DNA of 64,000 nt from Branchiostoma floridae (lineage: Eukaryota > Chordata > Leptocardii > Amphioxiformes > Branchiostomatidae): assembly GCF_000003815.2 (NCBI RefSeq), contig NC_049995.1, positions 14,551,378-14,615,377 of the forward strand, written 5' to 3'. A program made the position numbers and the translations under genes. Under the pieces are notes generated by a model. The model had not been told where the DNA came from, searched no databases, and saw nothing but the letters and a program-made list of their open reading frames with translations. Positions within the stretch are counted from its first letter, which is position 1, and each line of letters opens with the position of its first letter. This document shows, piece by piece, positions 5,514-61,300 of the stretch.

Positions 5514-8500
5514 CTATTTGATTTGTCTGTAATGTAATGTGAGGTCCCCTCCACTCTTCCAGATGAAGTGTTTGACAGTACGGAGGTCCATGTTGGGGTC
5601 CAAAACCTGTAAAGAGAGAAAATATAGCATGAAAAATTCATCATCACCAAGGCAGTATTTGAGTGGCAAAAATGTAACTACTAGGTACTAAAATCCAATC
5701 ACTCATTCTCCCACCAATGTCCTCCTCAGTATTATTTCCTTTTCCCTATCTTGACTCTGATCACTCATTCTTCCCAGTTTTGGCCTTTCCTGTTACATTT
5801 TTCCATTCGTTTGGTAATCTAATTACAGGGGTCTAGCCAGCGTCCGTTTTTCCGTCAATTGACGGAAATTTGCTGCGTCTGACGGAAAAATTTTAAAACC
5901 AATCCGTCAACTTTGACGGACAAAAATCCTTGGTCGAAGCTACAGGCGGCTTGGGGACGCCGTCCACGGCTGTAAAAGCCACACACTGTTTGTTTTGCTA
6001 TTGTTATGATTGTTGACAATGTGTGTCGGCGCCCTTTCGCATACGATAATCTCATTATAACCGGTTGTTCAAGGTCTCAGTTCAGTCCTTCTAATTAATT
6101 TTCGCGGTTTTCGCGACGATTGTAATTGGCTGACGGAAAAAAATTTCGAGCTGGCTAAAGCCCTGTCTAATTAGTCCTCTTATATTCTTTTTTTCTCACT
6201 CTATCATCCTGTCCATCTTTCTTCACCCTCTCTTTTCTCTTCTTCAAATCCCTCTATCCTTACCTGATCCTGACACAGTAGCTCTATTTTCTCCTCCGCA
6301 AAGTGAAGAGATGTCTTCTTCCTTCTCCTGTTCAGGTTTCTCCCCTCCTGAAGAGGCTGTGTTCTGGGAAATGTTGTCTGTCTACTCCCAGAACCTTCCA
6401 TCCATCCATCCATCCATTCCTTCATTTATTCATTCATTCCCATCCCTCCCACCTCACCTGGTCCTGACACAGAAGCTCTATTTTCTCCTCAGCCAGTGAA
6501 GAAATATACTTCTCCTTTTCCTGTTTTCATCTTTCTTTATCTCAACACCAATCACTCATTCTATCTTTCTCAACCCCTCTACCTCTCCAACCCTTCTTCT
6601 CCCTACCTGATCCTGACACAGTAGCTCTATTTTCTCCTCTGCCAGTGAAGAGATGTCTTCTTCCTTCTCCTGTTCAGGTTTCTCTCCTCCCGACGATGCT
6701 GTGTTCTGCGAGATGTTGTCTGCTCCAAGAACCTTCTCATAAACATGCTCCATCACCTTCCTCACCTGCAACATGTCGCTGGCTGATAACCGGTCCCTGT
6801 TCAAAGGGAAACGTGTAAGGATCAAACATCCTATTTAGTTTTGAGATTCTGAATGCGTGTCTATAGATTTGCCTTGTTCATTAAGCTACAAGTTGGTCCT
6901 ACTGAGAAGAAAAACAACATACAGTCATACACAGATACACACACTCACAGGCGCACACAAACACATACAGACACAAGGACACAGACACACACAGACAAAG
7001 ATGCACACAGACACACATGATCCTAAATTCAAAAGACAAACACACATTGACACAAAGACACACACACACACACACACACACAAACGTGCACGTGCATACA
7101 GACAGCAGGCCAAAACTGTACTTTGAGATACACTAAAATACCATGTAAGATGTTCTTACTTTCCTGACAGTTTCTACATGTACCTACTTTTTGAGTGTCT
7201 TGGCTCCTGATGTGGAATGAGGCTGTAGGTAGAATGGAATCTTCTGGAACTTGGGCATGTTTTTCTGGTGGAGAAACACAAGATTATTATAAAAGAAAAA
7301 TCTCCTTAACGTAAGCTACACAACATCTTCTAACAAGTCATTAATTTTATTCTTTAATTGCCAGTGAAATGTGGTTTCTTCTATCATTCAAGTAAAACTC
7401 ATCTTACCCAAGGGCTTAAAATAGATCTTTGATTTAAAAGTTACATCATTCTATATTTTCAGGAAAGACCACATTTTTTTATATTAGTAACAGAAGACAT
7501 TGAATTTCACTGGCACAATCTTTAGGTCTTAAAAAGCTAAAGGCAGCTGGAGATCAACTATCATTCCTGAACATCTCACAATGTCCAACCCTTTCAAAAT
7601 GGGGAACAAAGGACGCTAAACCAGAGAGTCCTATATTATTTGAAGCTATCACAGCCAAATCATAATAGCCAAAATTCACTGCTATATCTTTTAAGGAGTT
7701 CCTGAGTTGATAAATTGATAAGTTAGTAGCTTAACTACAGTACTCACCCCTATGACGAGATTGAGAACCCAGGCAGGTAGTTCATAAGTTAATAATATGT
7801 CAATAGGTAGACTACGCACATGTAGTACGGTGTCGTCGATTGCCTATGCGGGTGGTTAGTAAGTTAGTGATCATATCACTAGTGGTATTGTTTACCTACA
7901 TGGTAGTTAGTAAGTTATTAACATGTTAATTGGTCACTACCTTGCATATACAGTCTGGGCTTGAAATATGTAGTGCAAAAAGGAATTTCGAGCCCTTTAC
8001 TATGGTTTCAATAACCAGGGTTGGACAAGTCCACTAGCCCTATTTTCCAGGGCAAGTAGAAGTGCTGATCAGGCAAGTACATGACTGTCCTACCCCACTT
8101 GCCCGATCAAGCAAGTAAGATTTTTCACGCAAGTAAATCTGTTATGTACAGTCAAACCTGCCCGAGCGACCACCTCTTTTCAGCGACCACCTGGCCATTT
8201 TGACCGCTTTTTCACGGTCCCATTTTTTTTTCCCATTGACGTAAGCATTAAGCGACCTTTTCTCAACGACCACCTGGCCAACGCGACTGCGACCGGCCCG
8301 AATTGCAACCTATAACGACCGCATCATTTTCAAGATTGAGGTTTTCATCGATTTTTGATGATAATTAGCGCGATCTTGTGCCGAAATCGGCCAGTTTGCG
8401 TCGGATTTTGGGGATAATTTACAGTTTACAGTGTGCGTGTTGTATTTGACATTAAAGACCTCCCTTCTTTGCGTGCGTGCAGTGTGCTTGCTATTGCCAT

Positions 8501-58300: not shown

Positions 58301-61300
58301 ATGGTGAAGGAGGGGTGTGCACTTCCTTCTCCACCCTCTCGTCTACTGGAGCACTAAGTCTCACAGGGACAGAACTGTATGACACGTATTACTATGATGA
58401 TGATGATGTATTACCGACACTGTCTTTCTGATTTTAAGATATGATATTTCACAAGGCTAGATTTAGATCTAGAGACACAGTAGCTAAGGTCCATACTGAT
58501 TGATTATTGATATCACTACGTTTATTAGCCGAAGCAATATGGAAAATATGCCAGCTGTTGGCTTGAGCAGATGGACAGTACGTACTAGGCTTACAATTTT
58601 AGTACGAGAAATTTTAGTCATGGAATACAATGACCAATGTCCGGAATACATAAACCCTTTTCCGCCTTTTGAGCTCAAAGAACAAAGTTATCACAGCCAT
58701 TTAACGACACTACTTGAATACACACACTCAACATCAAAATGTGCTTAAATATATTCAATAGTGACCAAAGCTAATTATTTCGTCATAGCATTAAGTATAG
58801 AGATAACTATGTGAGCTTAGGCAGTGGGTTATGGCTTACGTAATCAATGTTGACAAACAAATAAGTGGCACTTCTTGGTACGTCGATGTAGGTTAGACAT
58901 CCAGGTAATAAGATACGCCAAAAATAGTTACTCAAGCAACTGGATATGGTTTTGGAAACGGTCAGACGTTTCGGATAGAATCCACTATCATTCGTCAGTG
59001 ACACTGAAGTGACTTGGAAGAAACAGGTCTTTTATACTCTAACTATGAATGAAGACAATTTCAGTCGTCCAATAGGAAACGTTATAAGACAATTCAAACT
59101 GAAGGCAATTTGGATTCCAAAGGGAACAAAGGTAAGGCAACGTCAAACTGAAGACAATTTGGCTTTCAAATGACACTTCTTGGTATTTCAGGCTATGCAG
59201 AAGGCGTCACCACACATACATCACTCACCAATCATAGAGGCGTACATCACTGACTCCAAGGACATCGACCAGGTCCTACGTGGTGACGTCATTTCCGCTT
59301 CCGTCGGCAACCTTCATCTCAGCGAGCTTCCGGATCCGGCTAAGATCGTGTTCTATCACGAGGAGGATAATGTAAGTGATCATCATCACTTACAATTCCT
59401 CTACGTGTGGCTATGGTAACACCTTGCTTCATCTTAAGTTCATGAACAAATCTTTAGGTGTGTCTTTGTGTTTGTGTGCTATGTGACATATAATTTTGTT
59501 CTGCCTGTAAAATCACAATCACAATTTGCGTGCTTGTTTGTCTTGGTGGTGTGGTCCGCAGTGATTCTAGTGGAAGCTTAATGTGGCTAAGGTAAAAAAA
59601 GAACACACAGCTACTTCAGGTAAATAGTTTTCTCTGCAATACTTAAAGGTGTCTACGGTGTTTTGTAATATCTAATTTTTACATTTTTTGTTGCAGCTCA
59701 TTGGTGACAGGGAATGCGTCTACTGGGATTTCAAGCTCAATGGTGAATATCTTATATAGCATATTTTATAAATTCTATCAGCCTACACCTTAAAAGAAGG
59801 GATCTCTTACATAAGACGGCTATTTCGTGTAACATTTGTAACAAGTGAAGGAATAAAAACAAGCTTTCTAATTATGCTTTATAAAAGCAATTACCTTGGT
59901 CATACATCTACCAGATTAAACTGGACTTGAGAACTATATGATAAATCGAGGATAATTCTTACCGGTATTAGTAGGCACTGCAGCTAAGGTGTCGCTTCTA
60001 ACAATGTGGTCCTAAACGATTCCTTAACAACAGTCTAGAACAGTGCCAATCAGAATTTGCCTGAGGAGGGTGACATACTGTGTTTCTTGATTGTATATAT
60101 AGATCCTGGTTGGGAACAAAGAAACGTGTTATCCAATGACTTTCAACCCTAAAGAATTTGTTTATCTTGACACATGCTTTTAGACGACAAAGGCGGCTGG
60201 TCATCGGAGGGGTGTAACGTGTACTACGCCGCGGACACGCACACGGTTTGCCACTGTAACCATCTCACCAACTTTGCTCTGCTCATGGTAAGTTCAAATA
60301 ATGATACTGATTTCGGTATTCGTCGTATTTGTTTGTTTGTTTGTTTTATTTGGATCTCCATTAATGATACTAAAATCACTAGTGATATTAGCATTATTGA
60401 TATCTATCAGATTCCTAAGAAAATAAGCATCCGCTAGAGAACACACAAGCTTAAATGAAAGACCATCAAATTCAAACCATAAGAACAAGTTTAAACAGTT
60501 AAATCAAAGACCACCCAGAAGACTAATAAAATCCAGGTGTATATGGACAGGTAGCTATCATACACTAGATGCTTGTGCCAAAGGAGAAAAGTTTATAAAG
60601 TGTATTCTGAAAGCTACACAACTAGCCACCAGACACTCTCAGTACGCAACAACAAAGATAAATTATGTCCCTTTGCCTTAAAGTTTATGCCCTTTTATCC
60701 TACCAGCTGATTTCCGTATTGTTTCCAGGATGTGTACGGCTCCACAGCTAAACAGCAACAACAAAGATAACAAACAAAGAGTTTATGCTCTTATCCTGTC
60801 AGCTGATTTCCGTATTGTTTCCAGGACGTGTACGGATCAACAGCTAAACTGAGCGAGGGGAACCAGAAGGCGTTGTCCATCATCTCTCTGATCGGCTGTG
60901 CCGTGTCGTCAGCAGGACTGCTGTTCGCGCTTATAACGTTCCTACTCTTCAGGTATGGCTTAATACGAAATATGTACTACACTTTGGGATAATATCTCTT
61001 ACGAAATATGCTCTGGTCGTAGGGATAACATTTCTGCGCTTATGATCAATTCAGGTACTTGTTAACTTGAGAAAAATGCTTTGATCTCAGGAATAGCATT
61101 TATTCTAAACGATCGTATTAGTCAAGAAGCTAACCTTTACCTAGTATGTTTTAGAAAGTAAATAACTCTTTTTGTCTCGCCTATCTGTCTAAGTATATAG
61201 CCGTGTGACTGTGTCTGTCTGTTTGTGCATCTTTGTGCCTGTCTATATCGGTCTAAGTCTGCTGTTATTGGTCTGTGTGTCTGTCTCTAGAACGGTATAT

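What the first reader, a model, noticed from the sequence alone, without database searches (positions are those of the whole stretch)
5514..60952. Recurrent tandem duplication of exon-intron junctions in two unrelated genes
In WDR48 (exons 2, 5, 7, 10, 11, 17, and probably 15) and the receptor (exons 7, 12, 16) a piece spanning the splice site, part exon and part intron, has been tandemly repeated on the intron side of that site. Donors (2, 5, 7, 11, 17, receptor 12) and acceptors (10, receptor 7 and 16) are both affected. Random intronic duplication would rarely cover a junction ten times in about 47 exons. Selection would remove duplications that spoil the exon, leaving those that keep the outermost junction functional, but the excess suggests that junction DNA is a preferred start point, for example through R-loops, nicks at the splice-site consensus, or exon-anchored replication slippage. 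I recall that exon-intron border minisatellites were described at the amphioxus Adh locus under the name 'mirages'. I cannot check that here. What would be new is the density and the mixture of young and decayed stages.
Basis: partly seen in the sequence, partly recalled or inferred. Interest (0 to 1): 0.88.

Follow-up and report, generated by a model that had tools for sequence, protein, structure and literature searches.

The report
Amphioxus 'mirage' repeats at exon edges
In two genes that probably come from a lancelet, pieces of DNA spanning the border between exon and intron have been copied in tandem, a phenomenon already described in a few lancelet genes; a check on other genes of the same genome found such repeats again but no clear sign that borders are favoured over other places.

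Summary
The suspected exon 15 repeat was not found. These match the 'mirages' described in amphioxus Adh3, globin, PGBD5 and troponin C genes. The source genome (513 Mb) fits Branchiostoma floridae by inference.

Whether junctions are preferred start points was tested by random placement. In the window 9 of 15 arrays reach an exon edge against 2.9 expected (P 0.0005), but the pattern was noticed there first. In an independent sample (47 blocks, 208 kb, 243 exons) 8 of 25 do against 5.5 expected (P 0.15; 0.31 after allowing for slower decay of exon copies). Mirages are common; a junction preference is neither shown nor excluded.

Two CCT2 paralogues differ: one has a single exon edge, the other 14 tandem 67-bp copies. 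Most array copies keep the splice dinucleotide (49 of 49 in the largest array); how the right one is chosen is unexplained here.

The parts
5514..28073 (-). WDR48 gene, 18 coding exons
   Evidence: tblastn with a recalled human WDR48, splice-site mapping, single open frame, PDB WDR48 match of the exon 8 ORF E 1.4e-48, WD40 and DUF3337 Pfam matches
24614..26263 (-). exon 2 donor array, units of about 45 bp with longer higher-order units; exon end plus start of intron
   Evidence: copies
20820..20919 (-). exon 5 donor duplication, offset 54 bp, 46 bp matched at 98%
18260..18496 (-). exon 7 donor duplication, best segment 96% identical, 13 bp missing in the copy
11817..14742 (-). exon 10 acceptor array, 56-59 bp units, 49 copies found, interrupted by an N run at 12971-13070
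10992..11200 (-). exon 11 donor duplication, decayed; splice site altered in the copy
6248..6722 (-). exon 17 donor duplication, two decayed copies
46347..62886 (+). adhesion-GPCR-like receptor gene (LRR, Sushi, GPS, 7tm_2), 18 exons mapped, 3' part less certain
   Evidence: ORFs, splice sites, frame check (no stop up to exon 14, but exon 13 was read out of frame there and its start corrected later by eye), Pfam
51471..51968 (+). receptor exon 6 acceptor array, 178 bp x 2.8, 98% (Sushi exon starts at 51849)
57967..58213 (+). receptor exon 11 donor duplication, 82 bp at 93%
60692..60849 (+). receptor exon 15 acceptor duplication, offset 96 bp, 62 bp at 90%

Best explanation
These are amphioxus-type mirages: minisatellite-like tandem duplications that happen to span an exon edge. 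Slippage or unequal exchange copies a segment of tens to hundreds of bases. If the segment spans a donor, the first copy still joins the exon; if it spans an acceptor, the last copy does. The exon stays intact, so the duplication is tolerated much like an intronic one. Some then expand to dozens of units, and all decay with time; the exon-side copy is held by selection, so old ones stay visible somewhat longer at exons than inside introns. Shown here: the arrays, the intact WDR48 frame through exon-adjacent junctions, paralogues with and without an array, the placement statistics. Inferred: neutrality, slippage or exchange as the cause, the direction of change in CCT2, and that the exon-adjacent junction is the one spliced.
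For: WDR48 joins into one full open frame using the exon-adjacent junctions. CCT2 at C19:12.48 Mb has one copy of the 67-bp exon-plus-intron unit followed by single-copy intron, while CCT2 at C19:6.92 Mb has 14 copies, after which the same intron resumes at 84% identity. In WDR48 exon 10 the unit is bounded by AAATG in the intron and AAATG in the exon, a short shared word of the kind slippage uses (read by eye). Ages are graded: best segments W5 98%, R6 98%, W2 98%, W10 97%, W7 96%, R11 93%, W17 92%, W11 90%, R15 90%. Random placement gives 5.48 expected against 8 of 25 in the sample. Published work suggests that mirages do not disturb regular splicing and that they vary in length (PMC3087553, passages).
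Against: In the window 9 of 15 arrays touch an exon edge against 2.90 expected, P 0.0005, and P 0.002 after the detection-bias correction. Arrays at least 95% identical lean the same way in the sample (4 of 8 against 1.64, P 0.058), and decay bias should matter little for young arrays. I saw no shared word at the CCT2 breakpoints (by eye). The CCT2 pair alone does not exclude that the single-copy gene lost units. No RNA data were available.
Confidence: 0.72

Rival explanations
1. Exon edges are true hot spots for tandem duplication in this genome, through R-loops, nicks or exon-anchored slippage.
For: Window excess 9 of 15 against 2.90 (post hoc); young arrays in the sample 4 of 8 against 1.64, P 0.058; with a lower score limit and the earlier exon map the sample gave 10 of 31 against 5.87, P 0.047; one MCM2 gene has both a donor and an acceptor array.
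Against: Sample as a whole 8 of 25 against 5.48, P 0.15, or P 0.31 with the detection-bias factor; base-wise coverage of junctions is lower than that of intronic points in the window (7 of 68 against 371 of 1585).
Confidence: 0.2
2. The copies are kept by selection because they act in splicing, as alternative or decoy sites, or as raw material for new introns.
For: In four arrays the splice dinucleotide is intact in 98 of 99 copies, functional copy included: W2 29 of 30 (at most 3 core mismatches), W10 49 of 49, CCT2 14 of 14, CCT6 6 of 6. PMC3087553 proposes intron gain from mirages (passages).
Against: Copies are homogenised within arrays and not independent, and the number expected from neighbouring columns is already 90.9 of 99 (sum of four values). 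With up to 5 core mismatches W2 gives 34 of 45; by eye most of the other 11 are not true copies, but that is my judgement. The decayed W11 copy has lost the site. In the common 59-bp unit, use of an upstream WDR48 exon 10 acceptor would read into TAA (by eye), and 67- or 68-bp units shift the frame. Unit lengths are multiples of three in 9 of 17, P 0.075.
Confidence: 0.08
3. Assembly artefact: repeated units created or multiplied in assembly.
For: An N run lies inside the exon 10 array, and the receptor exon 15 duplication occurs again 2843 bp downstream, beyond an N gap.
Against: Copies within arrays differ from one another, decayed cases exist, the same structure occurs in several other genes of the sample, and similar structures were reported in a globin gene reconstructed from trace data (PMC3087553, passages).
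Confidence: 0.03

Closest known systems
'Mirage' minisatellites of amphioxus Adh3 (Canestro et al. 2002, NAR; not held; known to me from text and reference list of PMC3087553)
   Same: Tandem repeats that span an exon-intron boundary in a lancelet gene; units of tens of bases.
   Different: Other genes (WDR48, an adhesion-type receptor, and in the sample CCT2, CCT6, MCM2, ALDH, a myosin); one array of at least 49 copies; somatic instability not testable here.
Mirages of amphioxus globins BflGb6 and BflGb9 (PMC3087553, passages)
   Same: Donor-side and acceptor-side duplications, units of 150-160 bp, 81-100% identity between BflGb6 units.
   Different: Here six in one gene and three in a second gene of the same window, with a wider range of unit lengths.
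Splice-site duplications in lancelet PGBD5, with mention of troponin C (PMC3902484, one passage)
   Different: Larger arrays; for CCT2 a paralogue with a single unit is available here.
Intron gain by tandem duplication of coding sequence with a proto-splice site (Drosophila, PMC2891723, abstract and outline)
   Same: Tandem duplication creates extra splice signals.
   Different: Here existing introns gain extra sites; no new intron position is shown.

Membership tests
amphioxus mirages | tandem repeat unit spans an exon-intron boundary, part exon and part intron | tested here: met
   nine edges in the window and eight in the sample
amphioxus mirages | copies lie in the intron and the exon reading frame is undisturbed | tested here: met
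   WDR48 reads through 18 exons without an inner stop; the receptor frame was checked only in part
amphioxus mirages | found in a cephalochordate | tested here: inconclusive
amphioxus mirages | normal splicing of the transcript | not testable with these tools
   no RNA data
amphioxus mirages | length instability between alleles or in somatic cells | not testable with these tools
   one assembly only; paralogues differ in copy number
junction-targeted duplication hot spot | arrays reach exon edges more often than random placement predicts | tested here: inconclusive
   sample 8 of 25 against 5.48, P 0.15; window 9 of 15 against 2.90, P 0.0005, post hoc

The most novel reading that the evidence does not exclude
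Exon edges in lancelets are a real hot spot for tandem duplication, most visible in young arrays, and the spliceosome of these animals copes with dozens of intact, near-identical splice sites side by side (49 acceptors at WDR48 exon 10), so position rather than sequence must decide which site is used.
Probability: 0.2. Interest if true: 0.7.

Novelty: new member of a known kind. Interest (0 to 1): 0.37.

Why it matters
The arrays are natural experiments in splice-site choice: a gene with 49 intact acceptors, or a CCT2 gene with 14 intact donors beside a paralogue with one, lets one ask whether distance to the partner site or sequence decides. The sample also gives a rough frequency, 8 arrays at 486 exon edges of conserved genes, and a placement null that later genome-wide counts will need.

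Tried and rejected
BLAST self-comparison as a repeat detector missed the close exon 5 copy and was replaced by an ungapped seed-and-extend detector.

Earlier placement tests. One search demanded 8 bases each side of the junction within one ungapped match: sample 7 of 24 placeable arrays against 4.17 (P 0.10), window 4 of 15 against 1.99 (P 0.12). One search used the exon-edge rule but took mirage copies in CCT2 as exons: sample 7 of 25 against 3.95 (P 0.08), window 9 of 15 against 2.19 (P 4e-5); adjacent-copy arrays only, sample 2 of 16 against 2.35, window 5 of 7 against 1.25. One search corrected CCT2: sample 8 of 25 against 4.94 (P 0.094); looser viability rule 8 of 25 against 5.84 (P 0.20); score at least 40, 10 of 31 against 5.87 (P 0.047); score at least 60, 7 of 23 against 4.73 (P 0.17); at least 2.5 copies, 4 of 11 against 1.76 (P 0.072). 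One search also corrected MCM2: 8 of 25 against 5.48 (P 0.15). P values are not corrected for the number of settings tried.

Protein-level conservation of the exon 7 copy looked like selection; the gapped alignment shows few substitutions and one 13-base gap, so it is simply young.

Selection on decoy sites: no verdict. Unit lengths multiple of three: 9 of 17, P 0.075.

The published Adh3 mirage as a positive control: two exons found at C6:27454269-27455075, but the DNA could not be fetched, so the detector was not checked on a published case. Passages of the amphioxus huntingtin paper PMC2206037 mention tandem repeats in scaffolds but none at junctions. One search (assembly size in print) gave a listing only and no confirmation of the species.

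Full report
What is there. The window is G000:C17:14551378-14615377 of a 513,431,437-bp assembly in 431 contigs; this fits Branchiostoma floridae from memory, which is my inference. WDR48 lies on the minus strand from 28073 to 5514. A recalled human WDR48 found its exons, splice sites were placed by score and frame, and the 18 exons join into one open frame. The receptor (46347-62886, plus strand) has leucine-rich repeats, Sushi repeats, a GPS motif and a secretin-type 7TM domain; its frame was right to exon 12, and the exon 13 start was corrected afterwards by eye.

The repeats. With a detector of my own (score at least 36, offset up to 600 bp, low-complexity matches removed) the window shows 26 repeat clusters. 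Nine reach an exon edge with a copy on the intron side: WDR48 exons 2, 5, 7, 10, 11 and 17 and receptor exons 6, 11 and 15. The largest is the exon 10 acceptor: 49 copies, mostly 56-59 bp apart, each with an intact AG.

Is it more than chance? The repeats themselves are. I placed each array (score at least 44, offset 20-600) at random in its own gene block, allowed only placements that leave an exon usable, and counted those in which one copy has at least 10 exonic bases and its partner is intronic. For the two window genes 9 of 15 arrays qualify against 2.90 expected, P 0.0005. The pattern was noticed here first, so this test is post hoc, and I built an independent sample.

The sample. Pfam searches of the same genome for CCT chaperonins, myosin heads and aldehyde dehydrogenases brought 74 loci (L009-L082), and ten more stretches over MCM and CCT genes were fetched. 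The eight loci lie in or overlap the window and were left out. Merged, the rest are 50 blocks of 219,449 bp. Three blocks with apparently intronless matches (L009, L010 with L021, L022) were dropped before counting, leaving 47 blocks and 207,572 bp. Exons came from recalled human proteins by tblastn. Copies that had been taken for exons in the CCT2 and MCM2 blocks were removed by hand, leaving 243 exons and 486 edges. Many myosin loci are close paralogues, so the blocks are not fully independent, and exons outside the query proteins are not annotated.

Sample result. Eight of 25 arrays reach an exon edge (CCT6 twice, CCT2, two ALDH genes, MCM2 twice, a myosin; list) against 5.48 expected, P 0.15. 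A ninth, CCT7, overlaps its exon by 6 bases; with a 5-base limit the result is 9 of 25 against 5.83, P 0.096. For arrays at least 95% identical it is 4 of 8 against 1.64, P 0.058. A simulation of decay shows exon-edge duplications stay detectable 1.25, 1.28 and 1.32 times longer for units of 60, 100 and 150 bp; with a factor of 1.28 the sample P is 0.31 and the window P 0.002. So mirages are common in these genes, the window is rich in them (9 of 68 edges against 8 of 486, Fisher P 4e-5), and a general junction preference is neither shown nor excluded.

How it arises. CCT2 is present twice on contig C19. At 12.48 Mb the exon donor is followed by ordinary intron; at 6.92 Mb the last 53 exon bases and first 14 intron bases occur 14 times, after which the same intron resumes at 84% identity. 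Expansion from one unit is the simpler reading; loss of units in the other gene is not excluded. Likewise one ALDH gene has a donor duplication that a paralogue about 31 kb away lacks, while that paralogue has a different, intronic array. At WDR48 exon 10 the unit is bounded by AAATG in the intron and in the exon; at CCT2 I saw no such shared bases. A duplication across a donor leaves the first copy joined to the exon and one across an acceptor leaves the last, so such events can be tolerated.

What stays open. In the four arrays examined the copies keep the splice dinucleotide in 98 of 99 cases, counting the functional ones (W2 with a laxer limit 34 of 45). Neighbouring columns are almost as uniform, so selection is not shown. 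How one acceptor among 49 is chosen cannot be answered without RNA.

Known or new. The phenomenon is known in amphioxus Adh3, globins, PGBD5 and troponin C (PMC3087553 and PMC3902484, passages read; the Adh3 paper itself is not held). In the listings of my searches (one search listed 20 of 47) I saw no title or abstract start reporting a genome-wide count, but the library holds open-licence papers only.

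Noticed in passing
window 60555-61062 and 63398-63905: The receptor exon 15 region, including its duplication, occurs again 2843 bp downstream beyond an N gap (63204-63303), probably an assembly or haplotype duplicate.
   Followed up: partly
window 22185-23513: A 928-base N run (22379-23306) has the same encoded sequence on both sides in opposite orientation, as if an inverted-repeat element had defeated assembly.
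   Followed up: no
window 17125-17832 and 18985-19754: Two intronic arrays with similar 162-164 bp units in WDR48 introns 7 and 6, like a dispersed satellite.
   Followed up: no
window 39954-42901: Plus-strand open frames rich in Ala, Glu, Val and Pro with 21- and 42-bp repeats, perhaps a low-complexity coding region of a third gene.
   Followed up: no
L014 and L015 (C19:6.92 and 12.48 Mb): Two CCT2 genes on one contig, one with and one without a 67-bp donor array.
   Followed up: partly
L083 (C5:24353944-24357594): One MCM2 gene carries a donor array and an acceptor array on neighbouring exons.
   Followed up: partly
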